A stretch of DNA of 64,000 bases from Aporrectodea caliginosa (taxonomy: Eukaryota; Annelida; Clitellata; Crassiclitellata; Lumbricidae): positions 218,501 to 282,500 of the forward strand of contig JACEVL010000937.1 of assembly GCA_020284085.1 (NCBI GenBank), in the 5' to 3' direction. Below are positions 2,563-57,700 of the stretch, one piece after another; position 1 is the stretch's first letter; each line of letters begins with the position of its first letter. Under the pieces are notes generated by a model that ran no database searches, was not told where the DNA came from, and was given only the letters and a program-made list of their open reading frames with translations. The translations under genes were made by a program, and so were the position numbers.

Positions 2563-3370
2563 GGCACCCCGTCAAAATAGCTCCGTCAAAGTAGCCCCGT
2601 CAAAATAGCCCCGTCAAAATAGCCCCGTCAAAATCGCCCAGCGTCAAAATGGCCCCGTCAAAACAACCCCGTCAAAATAGCCCCATAAATACGCCAAAGG
2701 CAAGCAGTTCCACAACGGCTAATAGTTGAATGTTACAAGAAATGTTTTGATTTCAACAAAAGTAGAACCAATACTTCAAAGATGTGGTTCTGACACATAC
2801 TGACTAAATACAAATTAATTTTTTAATTGGAAATCGGTTCACCATTTGGTGAGATCAAACGAGTACATCGACTGGGTATCTGAATGAAGATAAGAGTAAG
2901 GTCAATAGGGAACACCTACTTCCAAGAAATAATTTGCAAACGCTAAGCCGAAAGAAAAAAGTGAGTAAATAACGACTCAAAGAACGGGAACCAAGCATTG
3001 AGATTGGCAACTTATGGCGCTACTGCAATTCTGGAATACCTTCGCGCTATAGCGCATAATCTTAGTATCTAGGCTCTTGCTTAAGACATCAACATTAACT
3101 TTCTTTTTAGATGGTCACAATTATTACCTAATACCTAGAATTTTTTGTTCGCGTTTCGTAGAAAAACATTTTACATTTCATGCTTGTAGTCTCTTTTTTA
3201 TAGTAGTATCTTTTATTAGTATCTTCTTATAAATGAACAAATCTTGTGGAAAACATTTTCACATTGTTTTCTGTCGTAGTTGTTTAAGACGGGGCTGTTT
3301 CTACGGGGCTATTTTGACGCTGGGCGATTTTAACGGGGCTGTTTTGACGGGGCTATTTTGACGGGTCACC
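2563..3370. mobile_element. Foldback-type DNA element 1, minisatellite inverted repeats
   Basis: The left end has tandem copies of CCCCGTCAAAATAG (about 2566-2690). The right end has the reverse complement CTATTTTGACGGGG (about 3288-3365). Ends read GGCACCCCGTCAAAATAG and, on the other strand, GGTGACCCGTCAAAATAG. It sits inside the satellite. CTTGTACTCT flanks both sides (2553-2562 and 3371-3380), and removing the element plus one copy restores a normal satellite unit. The roughly 600-base centre is AT-rich with no credible open frame, so the element is non-autonomous. The tandem-repeat inverted ends and 9-10 bp duplication resemble foldback (FB) elements; assignment to that superfamily is inferred. 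Confidence 0.85.
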
Positions 3371-3525
3371 CTTGTACTCTATCGGCTTGCTTCGTACTTA
3401 ATCGGTTCGCCTGGTACTCTATCGATTTGCCTGTACGGTATCGGCTTAACCTATACTCTATCGGTTTGACCTGTACTCTATCGACTTTGCCTCGTACTCT
3501 ATCGGTTTGCCTCGTGGGCTAAATT
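3371..3525. repeat. Satellite array, degenerate right edge
   Basis: About seven strongly diverged units of the same 20-bp satellite continue immediately after the inserted foldback element and fade out near 3525. They show that the element interrupted a pre-existing array edge. Confidence 0.9.
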
Positions 3526-3790
3526 AAGTCTTCGCTTAAATAGAAGCTTGACTGGTGAAGTTCGTATGCGTAAGTAGAAGCTTAGGTAGATTGGCGAAAA
3601 TAATTCATGCTGGATTGATGACAGTTATTGTGGACATTGGTAGACTGCTTAGGCATTGAGTACTTTAAAATAATTTAGCAGCGTTAACTACGGGATAACC
3701 TAATGATAGTTTACTTTATTGACAGTGATTTATCAATTGCCATTGTTTTTATTAGCGATTAAATATTAGTATTTTGTTTGCTTTCATAAA
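3526..3790. other. Unassigned AT-rich spacer
   Basis: I see no gene, RNA or clear repeat here apart from two short GTAGAAGCTT-like direct repeats near 3540-3590. Confidence 0.5.
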
Positions 3791-3794
3791 CATG

Positions 3795-3990
3795 TATTTA
3801 ATAATCAGCCCCATGGTTTGGAATGGGCTCCCATTAGTATTACGCCTTGTGCCTTGAGTTCACTCATATGCGTTTTACTGTAGTCTTAAGACCTTCTTTT
3901 ACAGCCGGGTTTGGGTCGGGAGCGCTCCTGAGTAGTAACGTTGCAGGGCGCTATGTAAGTCCTCGAAATGAATGAATGAATGAATGAAGG
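3795..3990 (+). mobile_element. CR1-like LINE, 3' end
   Basis: A frameshifted translation resembles the C-terminal end of the LINE at 26545-27245 (W-N-x-L-P, then Y-x-F-Y and L-K-T). It is followed by GGGAGCGC-CTGAGTAG, GGGCGCTATGTAAGTC and a (GAAT)n tail at about 3967-3988. The same ordered 3' signature occurs at 27180-27245, so both are 3' ends of one non-LTR family. Confidence 0.75.
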
Positions 3991-4489
3991 AATACTTAAT
4001 ATAATTTCTCCCTTCATCTATGGGATACACCTCGATTGCCTATGAAGGTAGGTAGTTTCTGATAAAGAACGCTGTTTTGTAACAAAGCTGAATATTTTTT
4101 TACTAAACTACTGAAAGCATCATTTTATTAAAGGATTATATTAAAGATTTATTAAAAGATTTATTTGCTATTTATCGAAGCTGGTCTAATAAAAGTGATA
4201 GCAACGGCATCCTCCTTTATAGAGGATTGAGACTGGCATCACCCGAAAACCCCAATAAACTTCTTTTACTCGAAAAGGTCATGATTAAATTTAAAATCTG
4301 TAAAATGTAAAGAGAGCTCGTAAACTCAAAATGTTCTAAAATGTATAAACTAATAAATCATCTGATGAATGCGACAGAGTGACGAAATAATAAAATCTAG
4401 CGAAAGAAACGTCTGCAGAAATCAATATCGAAAGGTCAACGGGTCTGGATTTATGCGCCATGTCGGCCCCATTGGGCTGGGAAGCGGCT
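3991..4489. other. AT-rich spacer with a shared short repeat
   Basis: Mostly featureless. The piece at about 4208-4245 (CCTCCTTTATAGAGGATTGAGACTGGCA) is also found near 16281 and, reversed, near 32100 and 46075, so it is a fragment of a dispersed repeat. A minus-strand open frame across 4336-4761 has no recognisable content and overlaps the LINE fragment on the other strand. Confidence 0.5.
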
Positions 4490-4760
4490 AACTTGAGGCA
4501 TGAAACTTCGTCACAAAATTGACAGAGGACGAGATCTTCGTGAAGCTTGACTTCACAAATGCCTTCAATACCTTGCGTAGAGACATCATGCTGTACTATG
4601 ACACCATAAAGGAGATAATACGCCTTCAAACACAAGGCGTACTTAGCGGAACCTCGGCTGCAGTTTGGCTCCTTCGTGGTTCGCTGGAGGAAGGGGCCGC
4701 AGCAGGGAAGATCCTCTGGGCCCTGTTGTTTGCACGCGTCTGCCGCCGGTCGTGAGTTCA
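4490..4760 (+). mobile_element. LINE reverse transcriptase fragment (endonuclease-type family)
   Basis: The translation contains VKLDFTNAFNTLRRD at about 4540-4584, the palm motif A of a non-LTR reverse transcriptase. Downstream, a frameshifted version of the G-x-Q-Q-G-D-P-L-G-P motif lies near 4690-4725. The motif matches the equivalent place of the larger minus-strand copy at 61284-63720, so it is the same family. The fragment is truncated on both sides and frameshifted, hence inactive. Confidence 0.7.
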
Positions 4761-4842
4761 ATGCTCTCGAGTTTCAGACTTGGTTAACTGGACGACCTCT
4801 CGCTGAGAGGAAAGAAGGATGATGCCCGGCATGGCCTTAATT

Positions 4843-4848
4843 ATGATT

Positions 4849-4902
<54 letters not shown>
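4843..4902. repeat. (ATG)n microsatellite
   Basis: About 17 tandem ATG/GAT units with two TTATG interruptions. It explains the poly-Ile, poly-His and poly-Met open frames around it. Confidence 0.95.
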
Positions 4903-4940
4903 ATGATGAATACGACAACAATTCCTACATTGCCGTAACA

Positions 4941-5218
4941 CGAAGGTGATTTGTGGACAGCATGAACAGAGCGCACTACCTGACAAATAGATGTCGCTTT
5001 TTCTACGACATAGAGCCCTCACAGGAGCAAACAGAAAGCGTGGGATAGGCCACTGACAGAGGCTGACCGGGCAGTGTTCAACTATCATGCCCTCAAGAAA
5101 CATTAAAAAGAATTACTGATTACTGAGAATCTGGCAGGTTAAAATCTATGTCATAGTCAAAACTACACCTATTTGTCAGGTAGTGCGCTCTGTTCCTGAT
5201 GTTCACAAATCACCTTCG
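4941..5218. repeat. Inverted repeat, 50-bp arms, 178-bp spacer
   Basis: The arm 4941-4990 (starting CGAAGGTGATTTGTG) is matched in reverse by 5169-5218 (ending CACAAATCACCTTCG) with only a few mismatches. It could be a degenerate MITE or an inverted duplication. No target-site duplication was recognised. Confidence 0.7.
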
Positions 5219-5219
5219 G

Positions 5220-5440
5220 TCAACTTGACTGCGTACGTTATCAATTTCGATATAATCTGAATTGCAATTGAAATGTAGGCCCTGAAACTAATTGCGAACA
5301 TCGCCAATTAGTCAAATTGATTACGATGAATATCAGAGTGGCCTCTTTGTCAGCGGATCTAAGAACGAAGTCTGAATGAGTCCAGTTTCCAAAGTGACAG
5401 AAGTATAAAATAATACTTAGTTTCAGTGATTGGACATCAT
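5220..5440 (+). promoter_or_regulatory. Promoter of CUB gene 1
   Basis: A TATA box (TATAAA, 5404-5409) lies about 32 bases before the conserved core TGATTGGACATCATT (5428-5442), whose CATCATT is a plausible initiator and whose ATTGG is a reverse CCAAT core. The block, with upstream pieces such as ATTGCAATTGAAATGTAGG (5262-5280), recurs before genes 2 and 3 at the same distance from a conserved donor site. The start site is inferred, not observed. Confidence 0.65.
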
Positions 5441-5508
5441 TAGTGAGTCGAGCCTAACGTAGTTGGGCTCTTTCATTTCAAAGCTACACAGAAAGGAGGA
5501 CTATCCAG
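5436..5508 (+). other. Non-coding first exon (5' UTR) of CUB gene 1
   Basis: The sequence up to the donor at 5509 (GTAGGT) is conserved with 36148-36217 and 50418-50499, including AAAGCTAC-CAGAA and CTAT-CAG just before the donor. It has no ATG. The next exon begins at 6406, two bases before the start codon. The 5' limit is estimated from the TATA spacing. Confidence 0.6.
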
Positions 5509-6405
5509 GTAGGTTATGTACCACGAGAATTCGACTGTCTTGTGTGGAACAGGCCCTTAAGGCTACCGGTACCAGTCGTTTCCGGCGTCATGCAAATACA
5601 TAGCGTATCAAATCTCGACGAGGTATTCATAATGCTATTCTTATCCATGCACTGATATTAGTATATTGATATTTACATAATTTTAAAGTCCATTTGTGAA
5701 ATACGGAATGCCAAAGCTAACCGGGATGGTCACAGAAGGCAACGAGTAGGGAGAGTTGTTTGCTCAATGAGTGGATAGTTTGAGTAGTACTGGACACGCT
5801 CCTAATTTTCAACAAATCAGCACTCAGCATGTTCTAGTTAAATCAAAATGCTAAAATTGGTCAACTGTTGCTACATCTCTGTCTATAGACTGAATTATCA
5901 AGCAGAGTTAAACGGATAACACGTATTGTCTTTCTTTGTTTTATTTACCCTTATTCTCCATTGCTTGCTATAAATTTCGACAGTCGAAGCAGAGCCTACT
6001 GGACGTCTACGAAAAATACTTGTTCAAGTACACTGATGCAATATAAACGTACACTCTAGCGAGTATCGATTGAAGAACAAAATGCTGATTTCTCACAAGT
6101 ATTATGGAAAGCTATTTTCAAAATACTCTTTTAAAAAAACTTGTGAAAAATATTGTGCAAAATTTTCAAAATAGTTTTGAAAAGTATTTTATTTTGTACT
6201 TTGAAAATACTTTTCAGAAGTATTCTTAACACATAGTTATATACATACATGTATAGATACATAAATACCTGCAAATAAGTACATTGTATGCTTCTTAGTA
6301 AACTGGTACAGTAAAGGTCAGTGTTTCGAAGGATCGCAGTCAGCCCATTAGCATTTGCTTAGGCTCTTAACTTTTCGAGTTACTAATAATCCGGAATTTT
6401 TTCAG
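5509..6405 (+). other. Intron 1 of gene 1
   Basis: GT at 5509, AG at 6404-6405 after a pyrimidine-rich tract. It contains an AT-rich block (6110-6235) with repeated AAAGTATTTT and its complement; a related block lies at 32515-32645. No coding content. Confidence 0.6.
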
Positions 6406-6407
6406 AG

Positions 6408-6480
6408 ATGAAATTTGCACTCGTCATTCTCGGGTGTCTGGTATCAACCACCGCTGCCGCCACAACAGAATCCTACACAG
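6408..6480 (+). CDS. Gene 1 exon 2: signal peptide
   Basis: The ATG lies two bases after the acceptor. The 24 residues start MKFALVILGCLV, a hydrophobic core, then STTAAA and a short Thr-rich mature start (TTESYT). The exon ends in phase 1 at GTGACG. Genes 2 and 3 have the same exon with exactly 73 coding bases, which fixes the start codon. Cleavage is probably after the Ala run. Confidence 0.85.
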
Positions 6481-9101: not shown

Positions 9102-10920
9102 TTTATCGTTATCGTTGTTTATTAATAGCTTTGAAAATTGGTAACTTTTATAGCGCTGTATCTAATGCAGAAGGCCCAACCGATGGCGCACCAAACCTAG
9201 GTCTTAATCAGCTCAATCTTCCAGACAATCCGTTCGCTGAGACGATGTTACAGCCCTTGAGCAATTTGGAAAAATTAAAGTTTTAAATTCAGAACCAAAT
9301 GGTGACTGAGCCCAACGAGGAGACACAGCGGAGAATAACCGACACAGATTCAGCAACCAAAAACCTCGTTCACTAACCTAGTTCCAGTTAAGAGCCAGAC
9401 CAATGCTGGTTGTCTCACACCAGAGCTATTGGGCAATGTGCAATATATGAGATGCTTACTGATTTTTGAAAGTAAAATATGTGACGAAATTCTTCTAGGT
9501 CCGCCTCTCCTACCATGTGTTAGTTGTGTCGGTTGAGAGAGTGTATACTAGTCATTCATAATAATTGCAAAATATCATGATATCGCAATGCTTTGTTTGA
9601 AGGTGATGCAACAAACTTCTATAATCTTTTCCTTCGATAAAAGCTTAGCCAAGATATTTTGTTTCAAGAGTAAAGCATAGTGACAAAATAAAAAAATCTT
9701 TACTGTGTGCGACAGATCAGTTGTCCAAGCAACTCGAGTTTTCCTCCACAACAATTTTCCGGATCTTCTGTACCTGCTCCTGTATCGATTCCGTGGTGCA
9801 GCCAAGGACTAGTCCAATTTCGCACCGATGGCTCCTCTACCGACACTGGATTCAGCCTCGATTACTATGTCAATGAAGAAGGTAGGGGCTCTCGATTGTG
9901 CTTCTAACAATATTCATAATCGACGGATAGCCTGTTTTCATTGCCTGCTAAGAAGGAAAGAGTTAATTGCAGAGATGTAAATTACAGATTAAATCTGAGA
10001 CAAAGCCACTGGACCAAAGTAAGAAGCAACAATGGCATAAAGAAGAATTTAATGGTCTGCAATTTTAATTTAAAACACTGAACAGTATTCTTCATACTAT
10101 AAGGTCAGGTTTGCAGACTGTTATGTTGGAGAGTGCATGATGGGTGACAACATTTTGCTATTTGATTAACACAGTGACAGATTGATTAAGTGCAAAATAT
10201 AGAAGGCTATTAAAGGCTATTTTCGCGGTTGACTCTTTAAGTTCAAAATTAAAAATTCATAAAAAGAAACGTTGCACTATTATAATTATCTATGAAAGTT
10301 TACAAATCGAGAGGTAATTAAACAAAAATAGACGCCGTATATACTCGTATATATGCCCTGAGATGGATATGAGTGATATCATGTAGTTCACTTAATTAGT
10401 AAGTAAGTAAGTAAGTAAGTAGTTTATTCACCACAAAATAAAGCAAAATAACAAATTCACAACTTTTACAAACCGAGTGGTGGGCTACCGGTGAAGTCAC
10501 ATAGGACATTAGGACTCATCTCGCCGGTCACCCTAATAATAATAATAATGCTGGCGTAATACACGTTTTAAAAGAGCAACAACAAAATACTGGTTCCAAT
10601 TAACAAACCAGTCTCATGACAATATATATCATTATTGTTAATAATCCATTTTTTCCCACTAGGAAATTAGTTCAGTTATTCTTAAGCGCCACCGCTATAA
10701 ATCCCTACACGTTAATCACTAATCCAATAATTGAATGCAGGCTGTGGAAATACTTTATACAATGATTCCTACGGATATGTGACCACTCCGAATTATCCGA
10801 GTAACTACGGATACAATCAGAACTGTTCCAATATCATCTGGGCTCCACAGCAAAGCACGTTCTACATTTACTTTTGGCAATTCTATCTAGAAAACGACTG
10901 CAATCGCGATTGGCTAGAGG

Positions 10921-10974
<54 letters not shown>

Positions 10975-13900
10975 AATTAGTTTTCGGGCTTCGTCTTGTT
11001 TCGTCATCTTTGTGTAATAACGCTGATCAATTCTGCAATGCGCTGGGCCTTTAATCCAACGATTTAGGGTTTCCACCTGCTTCGGCTTTATTTTGTCTGC
11101 TGTGTGTAATAATCCTAAGCTATTAGGTAGCATTGTGGAACATGTGGTCCAGCGATCTATGACTCCACCTACTGAATGGACTCTGTTTAATGACCCCGGA
11201 GAAGTTCTTCGCATAAAGTCGCTTCATTTGTCAGGTAGAGAACTGGTTTTCCAGCTGAATATATTGTACTCAGGTCGGACTCCCGTTCATATGTCGCGTA
11301 CAACTTAGGCATTTCTATAGTCATTAAATCATGGGCCACGACAATAAGTTGGACATAGATTTCAACACGATACGCAGTAGTAGGCTACGCACGCAAGCAT
11401 AATCAATCCAAAACATGTAAATTTAAATTTGAAAAGTAAAAATAATATCAACTGTAATTCGACACTTGCCCACTAAGTTACAGTTCGCGAATTCCTAAAA
11501 TAAATATATGTAGTATAGGCCTACTCTATACAGTTCTTAGATAAAGGTGCTCAACTGAATAAGGTTCTCGTGTAATGTTACGTAAAAAGCCATGGCACTC
11601 ATATGGTCGCTTTGAAGCACCTTCTAAAAGCGTTATTTAAGTAACAAGAAAAAACGTTGAACTAAATAATTTGAAACAGAACATTGTTCCGAGATGAATT
11701 TCTGGTTATGAGAAAGCCATGTTAACTGGTTACTATGCCTAATTGCGATGAACCTTCTTTACCTCACATCATCACATGTAACAGTTAATGAAAACGGATG
11801 ATGTATAGTAGAATCATTCTGCTCATTTCTGTTCTAGATATGCTGCCTAGATAGTTACACACAGTATGGTAGATTTTGTGGATACTATAATTCGTACAGC
11901 CTGTACATCTACGACTGCCGTCAAGTTCTTCTGTGGTTCCATAGCGATGGTTCTAACAACTCTCAAGGATTCAATATCGAGTACAACGTCTACACGAATG
12001 CAGGTAAGTGTAAACAGTATTCTGAATATGTGACGTCGGCCGAGAGTAGGGACCACTTGTCGCTTTCTAAATCAGCCGGAAAATGGGATGTTTCGTAAAA
12101 CCGTGATTATTAATTTTTGGGTCTAATTACCCGGTACTGCATCTGATGCTAATAATCGCTGTATATAGGTCGCTATACATAGGGAACTACTGTATAATAC
12201 TGCACAATGAGTGAATACCTGGTATTAACACATCGGGTAGAGACAGTTTAAATATTTATAGGTGATTTCCCGCCATATGATATTTTATATTTTCTTTACA
12301 AAGTAGATAAAGTTTGGGCCAAAGTTCTGAAATGTTTACCCTGATTTTCTGACGGCATAAGCTTACTGAAACTGTTAATAAGTCAAATCCCGACAACAGG
12401 TCCCTTCTCTCGGCCGAAATCACATATATTGAACTGCATTTGATGGGTATTCGACGATAGGTTGAGTTTCGATACATGCATAGTGCATACATTAATACAT
12501 ACTTACATACCTGCATGCGCAGGTTACGTGGTCACTATTAGTCTCAATTCATGCATATTCCTATATTCATTAATTCATACATACATGCGCTTACAAACAA
12601 GCCGCGCAAGACCACAACATATTTCTAAAATATAATTAAACTATATTAAATAATTTTAAACTGAGAACTTTTAATACGCCATTTAAAATCCTCCCACATG
12701 GGGGTGAATTTGCTCTAAAAAGGCGTGCACTAGGATTGAATTCCTAAAACGTGGCTATGTTTTAATCCGCTCTTGAAACTCCCACCTTCAATAGCGCCAC
12801 TCAAAATCCACGTGCACTAGGGTTCGAATCTGTTCCTGAAACTCCAAAACTTCTATAGCGCCACTCGAAAACCGTGCACAATAGGGTTCGAAACGCGTAG
12901 TAGCCCTAGAATACGCCGTTAAATATGTGCCTATGGTTAGAACTTTAAACTTCTAATAGCGCCACAAAAAACCCAAAACTTCTATAGCGCCTCACGCACT
13001 CACTAGGGCTGGAATACGCTGTTTTAAGAAAAGTTCTAGTGTTGAGAAAGTGGGCTGAAGCAGATAGTAGGTTCACAGTGGACAAAATAAACAGTTGGTT
13101 CAACTGCCCTGAAACAGACAGTAGGTCAAAAGTTCGCGCATATAATCAGTAGGTTAAATTTGCCCTTGTTTCATCATATACGTCACTACTCATACACTTA
13201 TGAATACATGCATATATATACTACTCCTACACTTATGAATACATGCATATATATATACACTACTCAATACTCATACACTTATGAATACATGCATATATAT
13301 ACACTACTCAATACTCATACACTTATGAATACATGCATATATATACACTACTCAATACTCATACACTTATGAATACATGCATATATATACACTACTCAAT
13401 ACTCATACACTTATGAATACATGCATATATATACACTACTCAATACTCATACACTTATGAATACATGCATATATATACTACTCAATGTACTCATACACTT
13501 ATGAATACATGCATTATATAAGTATGTACCTACAGGACCGGATTACGGGTGATGGGGGCCCATGGGGCCAAATAGACAGGGTCCTTTTGTGCAGCGGACT
13601 CTTTGCCTTTTTTGATGCGCAGTTTCAGACAGAAACAACCTCATACCTCCAATTAATGATTAGTTAGTACAATCAGAAGCTAATTTAGATCTAGTCACTA
13701 TCATGGTCACTCTTAGAATCTCTTCCTTAGTCAGATGACACACGCAGTGATGGGACACAACAAATAAAATTGCAACTGGTGGGGCCCCTAACTTGTGGTA
13801 GCCTCTGGGCTGACGACCATGTAGCCGATGCTTAAGTACTATGAGTCGGTCACTGCACAAGGAACTTGAACGAGCCATTACTCAGCACTAACGTCTTATT

Positions 13901-18532: not shown

Positions 18533-21500
18533 GAAGAAGTGAAATTCTCGTTCTAAGAGGAAAGGTTTTTAGAGTACCTGTTGCTACTCTATAATATTCT
18601 GAAGTCTTTTATTTAAATATATTTGACTAAAACGTCTTGTTGTTTGTAGTCTGCGGTGATTCTTCTTACTATGATTCCTATGGAGTCATCAGTTCTCCCA
18701 ACTACCCTGGCTATTATTACAACAACCTCTTCTGTGATTACTACGTTTCCAATTCAGCTGGAAATTCTTTGTCATTTATCTTCAAATCGTTCCATGTTGA
18801 ATATCCGGATTTCGTGACAGTTAGTATTTGAAGACGTTGCTATAGGTTAACTTTTGTTATTGGATTAAGTCCGAAGCTATTCTGCATGAGTACTTTGTGG
18901 TCACTACCCTGGTCAACTTCATTGCCAAGCCATTTGGCGATATAATGAGTGATTAATGCACTAACTTTTATAGGCTGCTGCAAAATGACTTAATGTCTTA
19001 CATAATTTTCGCTGGCAACCCTATGTTGCATTCATTCAAGAGCATAATATTTGGTGGGTATCCGGTAATGTTCTTGTAAGTTCGTGAAAAAGAAAACCAC
19101 TGAGCTGCACCAAACTGTACAGGGCTATGTTGTGAGGAGAGGGCCGTTCACTAAACATCGGTGACGAACGGTCATGAAAGCACTTTTGGATACGGCGCTG
19201 CCTGTATGTATACAGGCTACTTTTGCCTATAGAACTATGTATAAGCTTATGTGGATGGTACTTCATAGTCAATAATTTGTAATAATTGTTCCTCAAAATT
19301 ATCACTGTTTGGCGTTTGCAGTTGTGCTTTGAATTTGCCAAATCTGTTCTAAGTTAAAGGTTTGAAATTAATATGTCCTGCGAAACATAAAACCACCATA
19401 GGTCTATTTGGTTTCGCAGTCTATATAGCCTACTTTCAGCATAGCATAGTAGGTAGGTAAAATATAAGAATATCTTCACTTTGTACGACAGATCAGCTGT
19501 CCTTCAGACTACAATTTTCCACCACAAGAATATTCCGGGCATACTTTACCTGACCCCATATCAATTCCGAATTGCTATCAAGGAAGGATCAACTTTCGCA
19601 CGGACTACACTAACGTCTCCAGTGGATACAGCATCGATTATTATGTCAGTTCTACAGGTAGGAACTTTCGATAGTGCTTTGATTAAATTCGAATGACAAA
19701 CAAGTGTATAACTCCATAGAGAGAAGGAAAGAGATAATTGCATCCATGGTAACTGTGACAAAGAGATGCGGCGAGTGGAGTAAGGTCATATATGAGCTAA
19801 GGATGGCGTGCATCAAGAAGAAATTAAAGAACTGAAGATGGTCGTGATCGTCACCTTTTAATTTATTCAACTCCCAGATAAAAGATACACCTAGGCAACC
19901 ACTATATTCAGGGACCATTAATAATATAAAAATGTGCGAAGCAGGATAGGTCACGTTTGCTTCCGAGCCCAAAGGCATTGCCGACACACGCTTCATTCGC
20001 TGGAAGAGGGTTTCTAGTGATTGGATGAAGAGTAGACAGACTGTTTAGGAGCAAATTAGATCACTGACTATAGTTAACAGCATTTTGGAGTTGACTCCCA
20101 GAGTTTGAAGATTATCTATTTATCTAAATTTAATCACTATTTAGATACAAAAGTGATATGAATAATAATAATGGTGATATAATTATAACTCACTAAAGCG
20201 AGTTCAGTTCTTCTTTGTCGCCAGTTTTGCCTAAATTGTATGAAAATGTTATACATAGGTTTAAAATAGCTTTCCCCGTTTTACTGTATTTCTGCAAGAA
20301 ACCTGATTTCGATATTTGAATTCAGTTTGTGTATAAAATGTTGTCAACAGGTTTAAAAATCTCCTTCTTTTTACTGTACTAATTTGATAATTAAATAGAT
20401 TGTGGAAATACAGTATACATTGGGCCAAACGGGCTAGTGAACTCTCCGAATTGGCCGGACTTCTACGGATACAATCAGAACTGCTCTAACATCATCTGGG
20501 CCACACAGGAAAGCACGATCCAGCTCAACTTTCACTTTTTCAACCTACAAGACAACTGCAGTTGTGACTGGTTGGAGGTATAAATATAAATACCGTACCC
20601 TGACAGCATGTGCAGGGGCATCAGATGGGCCCCAGATGGGCTTCATACGGGCCCACAAATATGTATACCCTACTATATGTGGGCTTCATATGGGCACATT
20701 GGAAGGGTAATTAGATACATGACCTATCATTGACCTATAGATAGGTGGGAATTTTAGGGAACTAATCTATCAAACAGTAATGCGGCTTCGTCTTTCTTTT
20801 GCGTTCTCTGTATAACAGTAGTGGTCTATTCGGTAGCGCATTGGGTCTGTCATCCATCAATTTCGGGTTCGCATCTGTTTTGGGGACTCTGTGTTTTGAC
20901 CCTGTACACTGTGGCTTGCACAGAATTTCCCTACAAGGTGGTTTGCGCACAAGTGTTTCCGTCTCGGATTCAGAATTACAGGGAAGTAGAGAACGACTGT
21001 GCATCAGCGCATACGTTCTGAGGTCAGATGTCACACATTTTAGACATTAAATGTCTAAAATGTGTGACTATTTTAGTTTCTTCTATTCACAACGCTCGCA
21101 AGTGTAGTGTCTTTAACTCATTGCTGAACTCAGTATCTGTGGATATAGTGACATTGGAAATTTTCCAATGTCACTATATCCACAGATACTGAGTTCAGCA
21201 ATGAGTTAAAGACACTACACTTGCGAGCGTTGTGAATAGAAGAAACTAAAATAAATTTAAATAAACTAAAAATAGCATCCATGGTAATTCAACAATATAC
21301 CCAGTGATTTCCTGGCGATGAGGCTATGATGACTGCCTTAAATTGTTCGCTTGGGTAAAGTATGCTCTAAAGGCATCGAATAAGGTTCTCATGTAATGCA
21401 ATCTAAATAAACATTTACGTAGCACCTTTGGTGCACACTCTAAAGGTTCTAATAGTATGGTTATCCACCTGAAATAAAACAAATGCGACATGAAGGTAAT

Positions 21501-24500
21501 ATAGAAAATGTCGGTTGAGCTGAATTAATTGTTTCTGGTTGAAGGTGCGTTGCATGAAAATGCCCGATTATAGCCTTTAGTTATGTGTGACAGCAAGACA
21601 TCTTCCACAATCTCACAATATCTCCTTCAGGCTTCAATGAATCCCTGCCAGAGGAGGGGTCAGCCGCACTCCAGTTGTTTCTGTCGCCAGTATCTTCTTT
21701 CTTTCATCTGTAAACTCCAGGTTTTGTTGTATCATGTCTCCGCATCTCTTCTCCTGTCGTCCACGATTGCGGCGTCCAGTGACCTCAGCTGTCATAATTC
21801 TTTTCATACAGTATTCATCCTCTCTTCTCACCACATGACCGTGCCATCTCAACCTGGCCTCTCGTATTTTGTCAGTAATACATGCCACTCCCAGCGTCTT
21901 TCTGATGACCTCGTTTCTTTTCTTATCCTTCAGCGAGACTCCAGGTATCCACCGCAGCAAACACATTTCTTTTCTCTCCAGTACTCTTCCTCTCCCCGTG
22001 TCACTATCCAGGCTTCTGCGTCATACATCATAACCGGTCTTGTCACTGTCTTTTATACATTACAAATGAGATGAATGTATGTATGTATGTATGCATGTAT
22101 AATCTGGAACGATAAAACAGTTGAAAACAATGGACTAGGATAGTAACGGTAACAGGACAATCACCCCCCCGGACAATCACCCCCCGGACAATCACCCCCC
22201 GGACAATCACCCCCGGGACAATAACCCCCAGGACAATAACCCCCCGGACAATTACCCCCCATATTGACTTACCAAACATCAAAAACTAATTATTAGACAA
22301 TTAGTAGACAATTAGTAGACATCATAAACCACTGGTAGTAGACATCAAAAACTAATTATTAGACAATTAGTAGACAATTAGTAGACATCATAAACCATTG
22401 GTAGTAGACAATTAGTAGACATGAAAGATTTACCAAACATCAAAAACTAATTATTAGACAATTAGTGGTCAATCGGGCAAAGAGTAGACATAAAGAATTA
22501 CCAAATTACCAAACATCAAAAACTAATTAGTAGACAATTAGTAGACAAATAGGGTAAGAGTAGACATGAAAGGGGTAAACTACTATATAAGAGAAATGGT
22601 TTATGAAAAATGCATAGTTTAACATTTTGATCTACATGTATTTCTATCCACGATGGAATTTTTTAAATCTGATCAAGGAAAAGATAAACTTAGTTATACA
22701 TATGTCTAATAAATGCAATTATAAACTGTATGATTAATACAAATTACTTGTATATTTAGATAATCAATATTATATCAATATGGGGGGTAATTGTCCGGGG
22801 GGTTATTGTCCTGGGGGTGATTGTCCCGGGGGTGATTGTCCGTGGGGTGATTGTCCGGGGGGTGATTGTCCGGGGGGTGATTGTCCTAGAACCGATAGTA
22901 ACATCTGTCGGTTCATTTTTGTTCTAGATAAGTTGTCTAGATAACTCGGAAGTTAGTACGTATAGATATTGCGGAAACTATAACAAGCACGAGCTGTACA
23001 TCCACCGATGCAGTCAAGTTCTTCTGTGGTTCCACAGCGATGATACAAGCAACTATCAAGGATTCTTTATCGAGTACACCATCTACTCAAGTCCAGGTCG
23101 GTGTTAAACGGTATTTTAAATGTACAGCAGGACTTTTGAGGGGTATTTGGCGTTTTGTTAAATCTAGTTACATACACACATTAGGGTGGCTCAAAAAACA
23201 AAATGTATAATTTTTTTTAACTCTCACCCTCTCAGAATGTTCCAAATAAATAAATAAAATTTCCTGTAAAGTTTTTTATTTTTAGGATGATGTTCAGGGG
23301 TGCCTCATGGCAAGTATAGTTTTACATAGGAATAGCCTGTTCGTACAATGCGGCAAATTAGTGTTAGTGGTTAAGTCCAAAAAGTAAACGCATTATATTC
23401 ATTGTCTAATAATATCTACTGTCTAGCAGTGCATACATTATTAACCAAAAGCAGTAGACTAACACTGTGTATTCAACGGCTAATTAAAGGATTAATAAAG
23501 AAAGTTCTGAAAATGGTTCTAGTTGGACATCATCTTCAACACAAAAACAGATAATACAAAGACTTTCTACCGTTAAACGCTAATGTCTAGCATTTCAGTC
23601 CAGCCACAACTGTGGATTTTCTAGAGTCTTGGAACAATTTTATATGCTCAGCATGCAATCATTTGAAGGACAAACTGTTTCTGTTCTTCGTTTCTGGTCA
23701 GATCGGCATTAAACTCCTGAATAAGAATTTCTACCGTGTTGTTTACGACTTTCAGTGCCTTGACATACTTCAGCAGTGTTTTGAATTCAGAATTATAGCA
23801 CCACTGGCCAGGACCGAGATGAAGATAGTCTACGGGTAAGCTCAATTCTGTGAAGAATTGAAGAGTCTGCTGAAAGCCTGCTTAGATTAATTTTCTGTTT
23901 TGCTGAAGGACTATAGGCCTACCCGTCATGACGAATCATTTTGATGGACAGTTGTTTCCAGGAAGGCCGACTCTTCACATGTATTCATCATTCCTCGTTT
24001 CTCTTCAAGAGTGACAGACGGATCAAACATTGTAAGATATTTCATTTTCTCTTTCAGATTCCATAGGTGCCCAATTATTTCTGCAATACACCTACAGATA
24101 AGACCTTATTTATGGCAGAGTGCTCCTGCAACCTTTCCAGGAACAATAGGTCATTATTCGGAGCCATATTTGGCATCGACGCTGCAAACCATGCTTGGAT
24201 GTAGGCCTATCCACCTGCATTAGGCAAGGTAGAGAAGCTCACATAGACCATGTTCTTGTTTGGCTCCCAACACATGTCTGGATGCACCAAACATGAAGAT
24301 TTTGAATCCGTATAATAAGTGTCTCATCTCTCTTGCTCAGTGAAGTCCTGCTGGAGCACGGAAATGAATTCCATTAGGAGGGATCTCTCCCAGAATTATG
24401 ATGATCTGAATGAGCAGTTCCTGGTAATCTTCTTGTGGCTGAGTTTTCTGATGTCATTGTTCGAACGAAGTTCAAAACTTCAGGTCTTTTGCCTAATGCA

Positions 24501-34253: not shown

Positions 34254-34482
34254 TCACATAAGGGCAATACGTTCATCAAATATGTCACAAAACATAGCCT
34301 GCTTCCTTGTTTCCTCTAGCCTTGATTATGTTAATTCAATTTTTGTGGGTCTCTCAACGGGCTGCAACACCTCCAAAGCTTCTCAACGCGTAGTTCTACG
34401 TGTCCCACAACGGACAAGCTCTTCAGTCCTACTCCATCAGCTGCACTGGCTTCCTGTTGAATTCAGAATAAAGTTAAATTGG

Positions 34483-34486
<4 letters not shown>
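34254..34486 (+). mobile_element. CR1-like LINE fragment, left arm of inverted pair
   Basis: The translation has FLVSSSLDYVNSIFVGLS, QRVVLRVPQRTSS and LHQLHWLPVEFRIKL, the C-terminal LINE segment. The same piece lies reversed at 35377-35609 with only a few differences. Confidence 0.85.
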
Positions 34487-34553
<67 letters not shown>

Positions 34554-34670
34554 GCCGGCTCTTTTGTTGACCCTGTGCCCCAGATGGAAGAGGGATAGCC
34601 CTTCCCGTTTAACACTAGATTTTATAATAATAATAATAATATTAATAATAATAATATTAATAATAATAAT

Positions 34671-34753
<83 letters not shown>

Positions 34754-34999
34754 TAATAATAATAATAATAATAATATTAAAATAATAATAGTAATAATAA
34801 TAATAGTAGTGACGATTATTAACCATACGAGGAGTTTTAAGGCTTCTAAAGTAGGACGGCACAGATCAAGAGCACGCCAAAGACGAGCGCCGGTCCGGCC
34901 AAGACAGATGAAAAAGCTGCCTCAGACTTCTTGATGAGGGTATCCATGGCCTGCGGGAGACTCACCCTTAAACTAGTAAGGTAAACGGTGAACATTGAT

Positions 35000-35036
<37 letters not shown>
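34487..35036. repeat. (CT)n, (AAT)n and (GA)n tracts with unique DNA between
   Basis: (CT)n at 34487-34550; a piece resembling a LINE 3' end (CCAGATGGAAGAGGGATAGC) at 34555-34615; (AAT)n at 34622-34808; unassigned GC-richer sequence 34810-34998; (GA)n at about 34999-35036. All homopolymeric open frames here are artefacts. Confidence 0.9.
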
Positions 35037-35037
<1 letters not shown>

Positions 35038-35038
<1 letters not shown>

Positions 35039-35346
35039 AGTGGCGTAACTAGGGGTCCGGCGCCCGGGGCAAGAATTTCCAATTTAAGTCTAAAAATTTT
35101 CGGATGACCTTTTTAAATTTTCGGTTGACCTTTTTTTTTTTTTTGCTTTTTGTCTCGAACCCTCATTTGCGCCCCTGTCCTACGTTTGATTTGCGCCCCC
35201 CCCTGTTCTACTTTTCTACTTTACCTTCAAAAAACCTCAAATTTACCTAAAATTTGTCTATTTTTTTACAAAAAATTGTCTTCGACCCTCATTTTGCGCC
35301 CCCCCTGCTGCGCCCGGGAGCGGCCGCCCCCTGCCCCCTCGTTACG
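35038..35346. mobile_element. Miniature inverted-repeat element in a GA tract
   Basis: The left end is CAGTGGCGTAACTAGGGG; the right end read in reverse is CTGGCGTAACGAGGGGG. GA repeats lie on both sides, so the target duplication cannot be read. The interior has repeated CCTCATTTGCGCCCC segments. Such CAGTGGCGTA ends are common in hAT-related miniature elements. Confidence 0.65.
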
Positions 35347-35349
35347 CCA

Positions 35350-35376
35350 GAGAGAGAGAGAGAGAGAGAAGAGGCC
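35350..35376. repeat. (GA)n tract
   Basis: The counterpart of the (CT)n at 34487-34550 in the inverted LINE pair. Confidence 0.9.
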
Positions 35377-35700
35377 AATTTAACTTTATTCTGAATTCAA
35401 CAGGAAGCCAGTGCAGCTGATGGAGTAGGACTGAAGAGCTTGTCCGTTGTGGGACACGTAGAACTACGCGTTGAGAAGCTTTGGAGGTGTTGCAGCCCGT
35501 TGAAAGACCCACAAAAATCGAATTAACATAATCAAGGCTAGAGGAAACAAGGAAACAGGCTATGTTTTTTTTACATATTTGATGAACGTATTGCCCTGAT
35601 GTGATAGAAGCAAGATTTACAAAGGTCTGTTATGTGCAGTCGCAATGAGAGCTTACTGTCCAGGGTTACCCAAAGTGTTTCACAGTATCCGATCGTGGCA
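35377..35700 (-). mobile_element. CR1-like LINE fragment, right arm of inverted pair
   Basis: The minus-strand copy of 34254-34486 extends further upstream in the element: a minus-strand frame reads T-L-D-S-K-L-S-L-R-L-H-I and C-F-Y-H-I-R-A-I at about 35590-35690. The left arm breaks off at 34254, so this is the older or fuller copy. Confidence 0.8.
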
Positions 35701-37988: not shown

Positions 37989-40489
37989 CATACATACATA
38001 CATACATACATACATACATACATACATACATACATACATACATACATACATACATACATACATACATACATACATACATACATACATACATACATACATA
38101 CATACTTGCATGTAGAAATATACATATACATATATATATGTGCATACATACTTACATATGTTACAGTACATAGGCCTACATACATACATGTGCATTTATA
38201 CCAGATGAAGTATTGATGAAGCGTGTAGGGTTTTTACACGTGGCGTAGTCGGCTCTTGTTTAAGGTAGTCAGACGCATTTCGTTATCGGCTTTGTCCACT
38301 CATAAGGCCCGCATGGTGATCGCTCGTGCCACGGCCATCGCCCCGCCAAGGGTCCAGAGGCCGTTGACGACTGAAAACGCTTAGCACAGGTTAAGTCGTT
38401 TATTGCAGAGTCACAAAACAGAATAACACATAAATGTTGACAACGAACTCTGACCACTCGACAGTTCTAACGTACTGCTTATCTCCGGAGTCCTAATCGA
38501 TTATATTTATACAGAAAGAAGTCAACAGGTTCGGTCTAGCTGGGTTATAGGTTATCGATTCAGTCAACTAGGTCGTGTTTGGTAAGGTAATCAGCAATAT
38601 TGGCTTACTTATATCGCTGCCTTCTCAAATCCCTCTCCCTGTGTCTCTCTCTATAGGCCTAACTTTGTCTGCCAGCTTCACTTTCTGTGATCACGCGGAA
38701 AGCTGGTCAGTAGGTCATTGGTCAATGGGCCTAAGACTTCATTTCAATGCTCGCTTTCCAACATAATTATCCCAAGGTCCTGAACATGGGTCCAATGCAT
38801 CGTAGAACTTTGCAGTTACCTGGAAAATTACACGTTCCCAAAAGCCCCAACATCTTGCTCGGGAATGTTATACATAATCCACCAGCAGGTGTGAAGCCTT
38901 AATCGTTGGACACAGACCTAGCATGTGCACGAAGAATGAAAAGATCACCATGTCACACAATCAAACCCCAGCAAGGGCCCAGCATACAGTGTAAGTCTTA
39001 ATAGTTTATAAATATTCGCAAATTACCGAATTTAGCCTAAATTAATTACGAATTAAATTAACAATTACTCACCGAATAAAATTAATATAATTATTATGCC
39101 GCTCTCGCGGTCGTAACTGCAGTCATGTAACTAGTATTCCTTAATACTTGTAACAGCCTAATTGCCTGGCGTTTTGAAATTTTGTAAGAGATCCGCAATC
39201 AAGACCTAGAAAAAGTTTTTTGACGCTGAAGAACAAGAAAAAGAAGAAGAAAAGAAGAAGAAGATGACGATGATGATGACGATGATGATGATGATGATGC
39301 TGCTGCTGATGATGATGATGATGATGATGAAATAGAAGAAGAAACAGAAGATTTAGGATAGTCCCGAGAAGACAACCATGGACATGAATTGCAAGCTAAT
39401 TTATTTTCTAAGCTTCGGCAAATAATGTCCGGTGGCCAGTCCTATCACGCGCCGCCTAACACCGAAAGTGTGCGGACAGTGTACTCAGTATAGCTTCATT
39501 CGCTAGGAGGCGCATTCTGAGTTGAAATCTCTAAAAAAGAAACTGCTGCCTCTCGGCTGACAGTCCAGCCGCTAGACCATTTTTACATACCTCGAGAGGT
39601 AGGCCTACTGATAAATGAACAGATGTAACTGTCTCAAGCTTCCTAGTTACATGCTATGCGTAAGGCATTTACATCAATCTGGTACATAGGTACTTGTACA
39701 TCTTTAGGTATAGAACCTCATTCAATTCCAAGTATGGCGGCTGAAATGACCGCCGGATTTACAGTTCACCACGCTAGTCATACTGGTGTATGATTTTATC
39801 TAATTATATCTACTGTAATCAAATGAATCCTATTGCGTTGTCATAATGACAAAGACATCCATCGAGAGAAAACAAAAGAGGGAGAGTGTAGAGAGACCGG
39901 TTGTTTCTTCAAATGTAATAATAGATAGCTACTGCAAAACTTAAAATCCTTGTTTGCATTATTACAGGCTCACATAAGCTAAGTGACATTTTGAAGGATT
40001 TATTAAATACGCTTAATAAGGTCCAGATACATTGGAAATTAATTTTACCGAAAGTATGGCTGTGTAAAGATAGTATTTTGTCGAATGGATTTGTTGCTAC
40101 AGTCTGCGGTGAAACCTCCAACTACGGTCCGTCTGGGGTCATCCATTCTCCCAACTACCCTAAAACTTACGACGACAACCTTAATTGCTATTACTACATT
40201 CACGCTTCAACGGGAAGTACTTTGTCGCTCATCTTCAAATCGTTCAACACTCAAGAAGGTGTCGATTTAGTGACAGTTAGTATTTGGCAATTTTGTTCTA
40301 GTTTGTTTTCGCATTTGGTTTAAGTACAAATTCATTTTCGGTGCTTTGTCCGGTCACTACATTTATTATTATTATTTTTACCCGAGGTATCAAGGATCCC
40401 TCAGGTGGCCTAAAAAGTCCGTAGACTGCTGGAAAAGACTATTATTCTTGAATGGTGTTGAATGGTGTTGTTGTCAGTCGTTTTGTCCG

Positions 40490-51620: not shown

Positions 51621-51693
51621 GAAATATGCACCTACCCTGATTATGCACATTTCCTAGGGTACAATTATTAAAATTACAATGCTTTTTTCAGAT

Positions 51694-51766
51694 ATGGAGT
51701 TTCCTCTGGTTTTCGTCGTGTGTCTGGTAGCAACCGCTGCTGCCCAGACAACTCAAAGCAACGCAG
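51694..51766 (+). CDS. Gene 3 signal-peptide exon
   Basis: Codes MEFPLVFVVCLVATAAAQTT then Q-S-N-A; 73 bases, phase 1, donor GTGACA. The ATG lies two bases after TTTTTTCAG-AT. Cleavage is probable after A-A-A. Most of it (from 51719) is copied in reverse at 63007-63418. Confidence 0.85.
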
Positions 51767-54700: not shown

Positions 54701-57700
54701 GTGACCATAGAAGAAATGTACCAGTATACATACTAATGTCTGTATATACCACTATATATAGGCATATTTCATATGTATGCAATAAAACCAGTTCAAACCC
54801 GCCAGCCTATGTATGTTCTACACACTAAACCCGAGCCCAGTCAGGAACCGTCATCCGGCCATTGACCGATATTGCCCGCGGGGAAAACGCATTTCGACCT
54901 CTGTTTGTACAATCGCCGCTTCGATCGAGCATAAATGGACCCATAGAATAAACTGGTATGAATTGCTGAACGCAGAATGTGAACGTAGACAATAGAGAAT
55001 CGAATATTTGTATGAGAACATATTATGCTTTAGTTGGTAGAGTGCGGTTTATCATTTCTGAGGCATATTTAAAGGTTCCAATTGGAGATAACTGCTTACC
55101 TATTCGACCGTAGCAATATTGGCAACTGAGAAGGCAATATTGGCAACTGAGAAGGCAATATTGGCAACTGAGAAGGCAATATTGGCAACTGAGAAGGCAA
55201 TAAAATTATTGGCAACTGAGAAGGCAATATTGGCAACTGAGAAGGCAATATTGGCTAACGGAGAAGATTCTGTGCTGAGACGTAATGTCTGCTATTTTAG
55301 CAGGCGCGTCATATTGTTGCCTCACTTTCTCGGTTGTTTATTCTCTGTCAAGTCTAAGGTTAAGAGTGAACTCTTTTCACCTTCTTACCCACCGTAGCTT
55401 GATTCCTTGGTTTTCTTACTGACTGGATTTCAACCCTTGACCATCGAATGATGTCATTCATGTGCAATATTTTTACGACGCCACAGAAGTATTTAGATTA
55501 GATCAGATAATATGATTAGATTAGGCACATCAAATACAGGAACAGGTCTATGATAGGCTTTGACGTGTCATTGGAACAATCCAACCATTTGCTATGCACA
55601 TTAATAGAGTAGGCCTATTTAGCGGAAATAAATGTCGTCCATAGCAACGAGTAGTTGTTTATTATACGTCAAAGTCATACATTATGCACAAAATATTTAA
55701 CGCTAACATGCATACAGTCATGTAGGCCTATTTTACGTTAATACTGTCGCTGGTGTGTTACTCTTTTGCAGGATTTTAGTGAGTCCGCCTCCACGTTATT
55801 ATTTCATTCTGTTCTTCTCGTATTTCTTCCGCTTCTTGAATCTTTGTAACATAGCTTTATCTCCTCCTTGAAGAAGTTTCGCAATAATTACGTCCATGCC
55901 TGGGGCTTTATCCGTAACCCGTTTTCATTTTCCTGTCAGCATTTCTGACCTCTTCTTGCAGAAATTTGGCGTCTGTTCCTCTGCATTGTTTGCGGTAACT
56001 GCGGTAACTGTACAGTGTATAGGCTTATACGACGTAGTTGTTGTTGTTCAAAGAATTTCTTTAATCATACATGTATGCTTATCTACCAATCATATATACA
56101 TGCTTATCTACCATTTCAACACTTGTATCTTTGACGGCGCCCTGTCGTTTGCGCGCAGGACGTTTGCGCGCCGTCGTTTGCGCGCCGTCATTTGCGCGCA
56201 GTCGGTTGAGCGCAGCAAGAAATGCCCGTCATTTGCGCGCGGGACGTTTGCGCGCGCGCAGTGTGGATTGACTTGTACTATTATGTCTGCAATCTTCGTA
56301 TGATCAAACAGCGAACTCCTGTATGATGGGTCGGCCTATTTTTATTCGCACTTTGATGTGTACTCCTGTTCCTCTTCGCTTATAAACCTATAGTAGGCTT
56401 ATATATCAATCTATTGTTTTTCAACCTATTGTTCTGGTTTTGATTTCGCATATTGTACCTGTCGTCTTCGTATAATGAAACAGCGAACTCCTGTGTTATG
56501 TGTACGGTATAGGCGCGTTGATGTGTATTCATTATAAGTTCTTAAACTATAAATATTAATAGTAATCTTATTCGTATCCTAAGCTAGAAATATTTCAAGA
56601 CCAGGGTTAATATAGGGCGACATCAAAGTTCGTATTGGTACAGTATATGATATGAGAAAGGTTTAAATACCAGAGGTTCTATGTGAAAATTCCAAAGCTG
56701 TTTATATCTTGTTAAACGATGGAGACTGCTAAATTGAAGTAGTCATTTCGTAGAAAGAAAAACATTGATAGGTTGCTGAACTTACAGCTAAATAAAAAGT
56801 AGTTATTTTGTAGAAAACCAATACAGATTTTTTGATATGATTAAAGTGGTTATTTCGTAGATTCTTTTGTTTGCATATTGTGACGGCGCGCGCGCAAATG
56901 ACGGCGCGCAAACGTCCAACGCGCAAATGACGGTGCGCGCAAATGACTGCGCGCAAACGACGGCGCGCAAACGTTTTGCGCGCAAATGGCTGGACACCAT
57001 CTTTGACTGATGTACACATTGTACCTTTGAGTTCGAATTGTCCACTATAGGTAGTTTTATCTCATTACAAACTTCCTGCTTTCTACTGATCTCTAAACCT
57101 TCCACATCTTCTCCGCATTGACTTTGCTTCCAATAATGTCTTAATGTCTTTGTCTCTTTGCCGTTTCCTTCTGATTTCTCTATAGTGAGCCCCGTTAAAC
57201 AGTTTCCGTTTTGCGATGTGAGTTTCTTGTTTGGCTAGAGTTTTCCTTTTCTCCACAAGTTCTATCACTTCGTCTGACATCCATTGGTCAGGTTTCTTGT
57301 GAGTTCGTCTGACTAGGTTGTTGGGTGCTGTGTCCTTTTATATGTTTGACCACGTAATTATCGTCTATGCTGTCTCGATCACTGATGGAACAAATTCCTC
57401 CTCTTCGTATTTCTGCCGGACGTTTCAATATTTTAGCTTCCTGAATCCTGATATCATACTTCAAGTTCTTTATTGGTCGGATTCTTCATAGCCTTATTTT
57501 TAAGTTGACGATCACTGGCTTGGCACTTGAACCAATTTAACCTACACGTCGAGTGGTCAGTGCAGTTTGTCACATTCCGCATATTCTCAGTTCCCCCAGA
57601 CCTGTATGCGAGACTTAAAACTTCGAGACCGAGACAGTGGGGACTAAGACCGAGACCGAGACAGTGCATGGTACCGAGACCTAGACACAAAGTCCAAGAC

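What the first reader, a model, noticed from the sequence alone, without database searches (positions are those of the whole stretch)
2563..56998. A set of foldback transposons whose inverted ends are different minisatellites
Three short elements (2563-3370, 22148-22893, 56136-56998) share one design: ends start with GG, each arm is a tandem array of an 11-15 bp unit, the arms are inverted, and a 9-10 bp target duplication flanks the element (CTTGTACTCT, GATAGTAAC, ATCTTTGAC). Yet the arm units differ completely (CCCCGTCAAAATAG, GGACAATCACCCCCC, CGTTTGCGCGC). Ends and target duplications were read directly. That one transposase accepts ends with different repeat content, or that arms are swapped or rewritten, is inference. 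Drosophila FB elements have tandem-repeat arms and 9-bp duplications; several unrelated arm motifs in one window is unusual.
Basis: partly seen in the sequence, partly recalled or inferred. Interest (0 to 1): 0.82.

Follow-up and report, generated by a model that had tools for sequence, protein, structure and literature searches.

The report
Three transposon families with repeat-array ends
The three elements are short, transposase-less members of three separate families of one known kind of animal "jumping gene" (Mutator/Phantom type), each with its own repeat pattern in its ends and its own gene-carrying relatives in the same genome, so the look is ordinary for this group, although the way the end tips persist while the repeats are rewritten is worth following up.

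Summary
In detail: three elements (2563-3370, 22148-22893, 56136-56998) have inverted 14-15 bp arrays and flanking duplications, and the arm units really differ. The window's own 1.1 Gb genome explains why. Dimers of the E1, E2 and E3 units have 65, 61 and 105 exact matches, reversed controls none. Most fetched copies with both ends keep their family's pair of different 8-nt caps and an 8-10 bp duplication. Each family has kin with a MULE transposase and the same arms: L075, L014, L090/L043. E1 and E3 kin share one transposase clade; E2 kin lie outside it. So several Phantom-type MULE lineages each have their own array, rather than one transposase accepting unrelated arms. The design is published (Tm1 of nematodes, Muta of Aedes). 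Less expected: over 17 families transposase similarity tracks caps (r 0.55) better than arms (r 0.36), and E1 kin share both caps exactly with a lineage whose transposase is 58% identical and whose arms are unrelated. I read this as arms rewritten under persisting caps. Members of a known kind.

The parts
2553..2562 (+). E1 left target duplication CTTGTACTCT (inside a 20-bp satellite)
2563..2570 (+). E1 left cap GGCACCCC
   Evidence: same cap type in the paired E1-type copies
2571..2684 (+). E1 left arm, unit GTCAAAATAGCCCC
2685..3287 (.). E1 core, no transposase found; element positions 21-171 and 448-803 match L075, which carries a MULE domain
3288..3362 (-). E1 right arm
3363..3370 (-). E1 right cap GGTGACCC
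3371..3380 (+). E1 right target duplication CTTGTACTCT
22139..22147 (+). E2 left target duplication GATAGTAAC
22148..22155 (+). E2 left cap GGTAACAG
22156..22267 (+). E2 left arm, unit GACAATCACCCCCCG
22268..22774 (.). E2 core; element positions 24-548 and 547-746 match L014 at 98.5% and 97%, so an internal deletion derivative
22775..22885 (-). E2 right arm
22886..22893 (-). E2 right cap GGTTCTAG
22894..22902 (+). E2 right target duplication GATAGTAAC
56127..56135 (+). E3 left target duplication ATCTTTGAC
56136..56143 (+). E3 left cap GGCGCCCT
56144..56262 (+). E3 left arm, unit GTCRTTTGCGCGCN
56263..56882 (.). E3 core; element positions 1-599 and 590-863 match C113 (L043, L072), and parts match L090, on the two sides of a transposase
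56883..56990 (-). E3 right arm
56991..56998 (-). E3 right cap GGTGTCCA
56999..57007 (+). E3 right target duplication ATCTTTGAC
61203..61281 (-). probable solo right arm of a fourth, related family (unit GCCGTTTTGGCGCCG); no partner arm found in the window

Best explanation
E1, E2 and E3 are non-autonomous derivatives of three separate families of Phantom-type Mutator-like elements (MULEs) in one animal genome. Shown: each has a pair of different 8-nt caps, then inverted 14-15 bp arrays, and inserts with an 8-10 bp duplication; each family has copies carrying a MULE transposase between the same arms, and E2 and E3 look like internal deletions of such copies. Inferred: the cap is the site of strand cleavage and joining; the array is a set of repeated binding sites for the transposase (its N-terminal FLYWCH zinc finger where present); arrays are homogenised and replaced by repeat turnover as the DNA-binding part changes, while the caps, read by the catalytic part, change more slowly. 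Hence related transposases can have the same caps and unrelated arms.
For: Own-genome pattern searches: E2 dimer 61, E1 dimer 65, E3 dimer 105 exact matches, 0 in reversed controls. Caps and duplications: E2 13 paired copies (window plus 12 of 20 fetched loci), all with one GGTAACAG and one GGTTCTAG, exact 8-9 bp duplication in 10, 7 bp in 1, none in 2. E1 14 paired copies (window plus 13 of 16 fetched), each with one GGCACCCC-type and one GGTGACCC-type cap (three caps with one substitution), exact duplication in 13 (ten 9 bp, two 10, one 8). E3 exact duplication in 15 of 20 loci, window included (fourteen 9 bp, one 8). Transposase kin: L014 with E2's caps and arms, L075 with E1's, C113 (L043, L072) with E3's caps and arms and L090 with E3's arms. 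Pfam MULE in pieces of L014, L075 and L090; FLYWCH in L090, L016 and 8 of the 10 ORFs. Tree: E1 and E3 kin in one clade (100/100), L014 outside it. Mantel tests on 17 families: transposase-cap r 0.545 p 0.0001; transposase-arm r 0.364 p 0.0013; cap-arm r 0.116 p 0.12. E1's two caps equal those of L027 in 16 of 16 letters; 3 of 5,000 random cap pairs reach that with any of 15 families.
Against: No MULE domain in the window ORFs tested (20 ORFs given to Pfam). No binding or movement assay. Arm units of E1-E4 are not more alike than shuffled units, so common descent of the arms rests on design, caps and kin. Caps are not clocklike: E3 kin and L060 have 74% identical transposases but caps only 11 of 16 alike, while E1 kin and L027 (58%) have identical caps. 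E3's caps alone do not place it (12 of 16, a level that 3,224 of 5,000 random pairs reach). L014's position is unsure (long branch). L075, L014, L027 and L033 show MULE without FLYWCH in the frames given, which may be incomplete; L021 and L067 also lack it. L027 and the C113 copy show no target duplication (by eye), and the ends of L090 were not resolved.
Confidence: 0.92

Rival explanations
1. One transposase mobilises all three elements by reading only the short terminal caps, and the arms are free to differ.
For: All six ends begin GGY with the array at nt 9. E1 caps are identical to those of L027, whose arms differ.
Against: Each family has kin carrying a MULE transposase between its own arms. 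E2 caps differ from E1 and E3 caps, and E2 kin fall outside the E1/E3 transposase clade.
Confidence: 0.07
2. The arms are swapped between elements by recombination or template switching, as modules.
For: Cap and arm similarity are nearly uncorrelated (r 0.116, p 0.12). Chimeric TIRs are reported for Galileo (PMC3573991, passages read). The end finders could not see mixed copies; 3 of 16 E1 and 8 of 20 E2 fetched loci stayed unpaired.
Against: No mixed cap pair among the 14 E1-type and 13 E2-type pairs. Arms still track transposases (p 0.0013).
Confidence: 0.13
3. The arrays are chance minisatellites or satellite arrays in inverted orientation, not transposon ends.
For: The window is rich in tandem repeats (105 TRF rows).
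Against: Conserved caps and target duplications in tens of dispersed copies; MULE domains inside.
Confidence: 0.01
4. The elements belong to another superfamily with 8-9 bp duplications, such as Merlin or hAT.
For: Duplication length and GG ends alone would also fit Merlin (recalled).
Against: Transposase-bearing kin match Pfam MULE (PF10551), several with FLYWCH.
Confidence: 0.01

Closest known systems
Tm1, Mutator/Foldback (Phantom) family of root-knot nematodes (PMC3169594; passages and first part of the Discussion read)
   Same: Asymmetric 7-bp end motifs (CGGTTAA and CCTACCC), then GGA and an array of mostly 14-bp units, mostly 9-bp duplications (8-10 bp in 45 of 53), Phantom transposase, mostly MITE-like copies. 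CGGTTAA-GGA-C places GAC at nt 9-11; 19 of 34 ends here have G-N-C there.
   Different: Two closely similar arm consensuses in two species, against many unrelated arm motifs in one genome here. Sequence similarity of Tm1's printed ends to ours is mostly not beyond shuffles (1,259, 2,912 and 820 of 5,000); the M. hapla A1 form does better (111 of 5,000).
Muta families of Aedes aegypti (PMC5225508; passages and whole Discussion read), placed with Phantom by PMC6446971 (passages read)
   Same: 14 MULE families with 8-9 bp duplications; 10 of 12 long-TIR families have 9-15 bp subterminal tandem repeats; Muta5 has an 8-bp terminal motif plus nine 15-bp units; nonautonomous copies share TIRs; FLYWCH in 13 of 14 families.
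   Different: In the text read, terminal motifs and arms were not compared with transposase distance. Its TIR sequences are in supplements that I could not open, so they were not compared with ours.
Tetris of Drosophila virilis (PMC4079207; passages read)
   Same: Foldback design, tandem repeats in the arms, 8-10 bp duplications, probable Mutator superfamily.
   Different: 220-bp units; no transposase-bearing copy found there.
Galileo (P superfamily) of Drosophila (PMC3573991 passages; PMC3688188 seen in a search listing only)
   Same: Long arms with internal tandem repeats, described as secondary transposase binding sites.
   Different: P-element transposase, 7-bp duplications.
VANDAL/VANC of Arabidopsis (PMC5735166; passages read)
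   Same: Target motifs of an element-encoded protein often form tandem repeats that vary strongly between related elements, and are proposed to co-evolve with the protein.
   Different: An anti-silencing protein rather than a transposase; motifs in non-coding regions, not inverted arms.
Drosophila FB/NOF and sea-urchin TU elements (recalled, no text seen)
   Same: Foldback arms of short tandem repeats, 8-9 bp duplications.
   Different: Not compared here.

Membership tests
Mutator superfamily (MULE) | MULE-type DDE transposase domain | tested here: met
   Not in the window elements themselves, but between the same arms in kin: pieces of L014, L075 and L090 match PF10551 over the cut-off; 150 matches in the genome over the cut-off.
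Mutator superfamily (MULE) | 8-11 bp target duplications | tested here: met
   E1 13 of 14 pairs, E2 10 of 13 pairs (8-9 bp), E3 15 of 20 loci.
Phantom subclass of MULEs | N-terminal FLYWCH zinc finger plus MULE domain | tested here: met
   Met for E3 kin L090 (in two frames), for L016 and for 8 of 10 ORFs. Not found in L021 and L067 or in the frames given of L014, L027, L033 and L075.
Phantom subclass of MULEs | FLYWCH in E1 and E2 kin specifically | tested here: inconclusive
   L075 and L014 pieces show only part of the MULE domain; both frames are incomplete. L080, an E1-arm locus, has a stretch 51% identical to the N-terminal end of L060, but Pfam found nothing in it.
Phantom subclass of MULEs | Placement within published Phantom transposases | not tested
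   No published Phantom protein was aligned; the trees hold only this genome's copies.
Foldback elements (descriptive class) | Long inverted arms made of short tandem repeats that can fold back | tested here: met
   E2 single strand folds at z -27.8 against 20 shuffles. E1 and E3 were not folded.
Tm1/Muta5-type end design | Short terminal motif (7-8 bp) followed by a 14-15 bp array | tested here: met
   Array starts at nt 9 in 6 of 6 window ends; two different caps in 17 of 17 families.
Merlin | Merlin transposase | not tested
   No Merlin search was run; MULE domains were found instead.

The most novel reading that the evidence does not exclude
The ends of these MULEs are a two-part address: a pair of different 8-nt caps read by the conserved catalytic part, and a 14-15 bp array read by the fast-changing DNA-binding part. 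Lineages speciate inside one genome by replacing the whole array in concert on both arms while keeping the caps, so new arm minisatellites act as incompatibility barriers between sibling transposases.
Probability: 0.35. Interest if true: 0.65.

Novelty: new member of a known kind. Interest (0 to 1): 0.42.

Why it matters
It gives a clean case for how transposon end recognition diversifies: one genome holds many MULE lineages with the same layout, and caps, arms and transposases can be compared side by side. If arms are rewritten under persisting caps, how a transposase and its binding array stay matched while both change becomes testable with natural variants. It also warns annotators that short families with unrelated minisatellite arms can belong to one superfamily, and that caps can show it where arms do not.

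Tried and rejected
Chance or satellite origin: rejected by consistent termini in the copies read. Similarity among the arm units of E1-E4 themselves: not beyond shuffles. Similarity of Tm1's printed end motifs to our ends: not convincing (1,259, 111, 2,912 and 820 of 5,000 shuffles reach the best score for the four forms tried; the 111 is the M. hapla A1 form). Viral and GTDB contig scans for arm dimers: 0 hits in three viral scans (all three families) and one genome scan (E2 only). Protein search with an ORF through an E3 arm: 6 candidates, none at E <= 0.001. The gypsy fragment search gave mostly unnamed proteins and no host. A FLYWCH-versus-arm comparison was dropped because several families gave no whole FLYWCH. 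A clean empty-site test for an E2-type copy in L043 against L090 failed: 15-bp duplication, left cap missing. Cap errors: and in notebook entry 4 I gave L060's right cap as GGCACCCC; the sequence reads AGCACCCC (with a 9-bp duplication GGATTATGG; one search lists it as 10 bp because it was given a 7-nt cap there). One search also lacked L015 and L065. Searches use the corrected and extended table and replace for the tests.

Selection to bear in mind: the E2 end finder required GG at the tip; the E1 finder filtered internal units and required the cap to start with G or A; the E3 finder allowed 2 substitutions from the E3 end pattern and kept the pair with the best duplication. All three finders see only pairs with the family's own arms. 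Twelve of the fifteen families were first picked by a duplication-plus-inverted-repeat search; L015 was also picked there but with wrong ends and was re-read by hand, and L027 and L065 were read by hand from their arrays. In some searches the caps of L064 and L067 are the 8 nt next to the array, which at one end of L064 and both ends of L067 leaves out one nt of the duplication-defined end; with strictly duplication-defined caps the 15-family result is r 0.676 for caps and 0.315 for arms. MULE loci in the first tree: 43 of the 150 listed matches (L090, found later, is a 44th); 7 distant or poorly placed rows (L009-L012, L062, L063, L070) were left out of the second tree.
Full report
What is there. 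Read from the outside in, every end is an 8-nt cap and then an array whose first unit starts at nt 9: E1 GGCACCCC and GGTGACCC with unit GTCAAAATAGCCCC; E2 GGTAACAG and GGTTCTAG with GACAATCACCCCCCG; E3 GGCGCCCT and GGTGTCCA with GTCRTTTGCGCGCN. The two arms of an element carry their variant units in largely corresponding order, with a few units gained or lost, so each pair is a true inverted copy. Flanking duplications are 10, 9 and 9 bp. A scan of the window finds no other pair of this layout; a solo arm at 61203-61281 is related to E3 (79.5% over 44 nt, E 3e-4).

How strong it is. Exact 9-bp repeats at random boundaries of these spacings occur in at most 76 of 200,000 trials. E1 sits in a satellite that itself contains the duplicated word, so its duplication alone is weak (746 of 20,000). 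The shared register of the six ends is suggestive (37 of 2,940 same-strand arm rotations, 51 of 11,760 with both strands, do as well). The units themselves are no more alike than shuffled ones.

The genome. The window lies in a 1.098 Gb assembly of 4,544 contigs. Arm-unit dimers have 61 exact matches (E2), 65 (E1) and 105 (E3), several matches often lying in one array, and none in the reversed control. From these I fetched 20 E2 loci, 16 E1 loci and 19 E3 loci. E2: 12 of 20 fetched loci plus the window gave both ends; all 13 have one GGTAACAG and one GGTTCTAG; nine have exact 8-bp duplications, the window copy 9, one 7, two none. E1: 13 of 16 plus the window; all 14 have one cap of each type (three caps with one substitution), 13 have exact duplications (ten of 9, two of 10, one of 8) and the other (L089) has none of 8-10 bp. 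E3: of 20 loci (window included) 15 have exact duplications (fourteen of 9, one of 8; in one of these, L091, the right cap is two letters off), one has 2 mismatches, one none, and in three the ends were not resolved.

The transposases. PF10551 gives 150 scored matches, all over the cut-off, from 395 candidates. I looked at 43 of them (L009-L038, L059-L071), later also at L090. By my reading of the listings 38 of the 43 hold at least one array with a 12-16 bp unit resembling those above, not always on both sides of the stretch read; L009-L012 and L063 do not. The unit goes with the lineage: for example GGACATTTCCCCCCC in L020, GACAATTGCGCGCC in L026-L029, TCATTTGGTCGAAA in L016-L018, GACGATTCATCCCCG in L059 and L069. 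L014 carries E2's caps and arms; E2 is 98.5% identical to it over 525 nt and 97% over the other 200 nt, i.e. an internal deletion. C113 (L043, L072) and L090 carry E3's arms and core pieces on the two sides of a transposase 71-75% identical to L060 over its longer matches; C113 has both E3 caps, and L090 has FLYWCH and MULE in two frames. L075 carries E1's caps and arms around a MULE domain 62-65% identical to L027 and L064, with a 10-bp duplication, and shares two stretches with E1, 93% over 152 and 85% over 377 alignment columns. Thus every window element has a family of its own with transposase-bearing kin.

Same transposase or not. In the tree, E1 kin and E3 kin are in one clade with L060, L064, L031 and L026-L029 (100/100); L014 lies outside it, its exact place unsure. 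So arms differ between lineages; I found no sign that one transposase handles all three.

Caps against arms. For 17 families with both ends, transposase identity correlates with cap identity (r 0.545, p 0.0001; 0.582 without the first two letters) more than with arm similarity (r 0.364, p 0.0013); caps and arms are nearly independent of each other (r 0.116, p 0.12). L016 and L033 have 57% identical transposases, caps 15 of 16 alike and unrelated arms (a row not affected by the later correction). E1 kin and L027 have 58% identity, identical caps and unrelated arms; 3 of 5,000 random cap pairs would match any of 15 families this well. Against this, E3 kin and L060 are 74% identical and yet differ in 5 of 16 cap letters. 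So caps persist longer on average, not always. All 17 families have two different caps; 30 of 34 ends start with GG and 28 of 34 have C at nt 11.

How it most likely works. Cut-and-paste by a MULE transposase with an 8-10 bp stagger (shown by the duplications; the enzyme's action is established for Muta1, PMC5225508). The caps as cleavage sites and the arrays as repeated binding sites for the FLYWCH finger are inference, supported by analogy with Galileo (PMC3573991, passages) and VANC (PMC5735166, passages). Turnover of the array by slippage, unequal exchange and conversion between arms would explain units that are uniform within an element and alien between lineages.

What is known. Tm1 (PMC3169594) has 7-bp asymmetric end motifs, 14-bp arrays and 9-bp duplications with a Phantom transposase; Aedes Muta families (PMC5225508) include ten with 9-15 bp subterminal repeats, and Muta5 has an 8-bp terminal motif and nine 15-bp units. 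PMC6446971 (passages) places Muta with Phantom. The present elements are therefore new families of a known kind. In the passages read I met no statement that caps track the transposase better than arms, but none of my eight paper searches was aimed at that claim alone, the library holds only CC-licensed papers, and the original Phantom paper was not held.

Limits. No published Phantom protein was aligned. Only part of each family was fetched. Function was not assayed.

Noticed in passing
window 21029-21253: Two adjacent near-perfect palindromes, one of about 40 nt and one with 92-nt arms around a single central base.
   Followed up: no
window 34289-35568: A 220-bp, 99% inverted repeat around 840 bp rich in CT and ATA microsatellites; the arms have open frames and may be an inverted duplication of a retroelement piece.
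   Followed up: no
window 61195-61300: Solo right arm of an E3-like family, adjoining the open frame of a LINE-like protein stretch at 61225-61854 (-); a possible remnant after loss of the left arm.
   Followed up: partly
window 1-2562 and 3373-3512: 20-bp satellite (GTACTCTATCGGTTTGCCTT) that hosts E1; no unit found elsewhere in the window with up to 4 mismatches.
   Followed up: partly
L043: An E2-type element nested in the transposase gene of an E3-kin element; relative to uninterrupted L090 there is a 15-bp duplication and the left cap is missing.
   Followed up: partly
L009-L012: A very distant MULE clade; L009-L011 lie beside an array of about 31-33 copies of an 18-bp unit.
   Followed up: no
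L067:636-2057: MULE domain and RING finger in one open frame, the only such case among the 10 ORFs.
   Followed up: no
G000, e.g. C1:591829, C125:317639: A family of many MULE copies scoring about 51 bits, many with a 474-aa open frame, suggesting recent amplification; the two related copies read (L059, L069) have 8-bp duplications.
   Followed up: partly
window 10731-11051 and 39925-40320: CUB-domain exons; 60350-60530 reads like another (by eye), suggesting a local CUB gene family.
   Followed up: no
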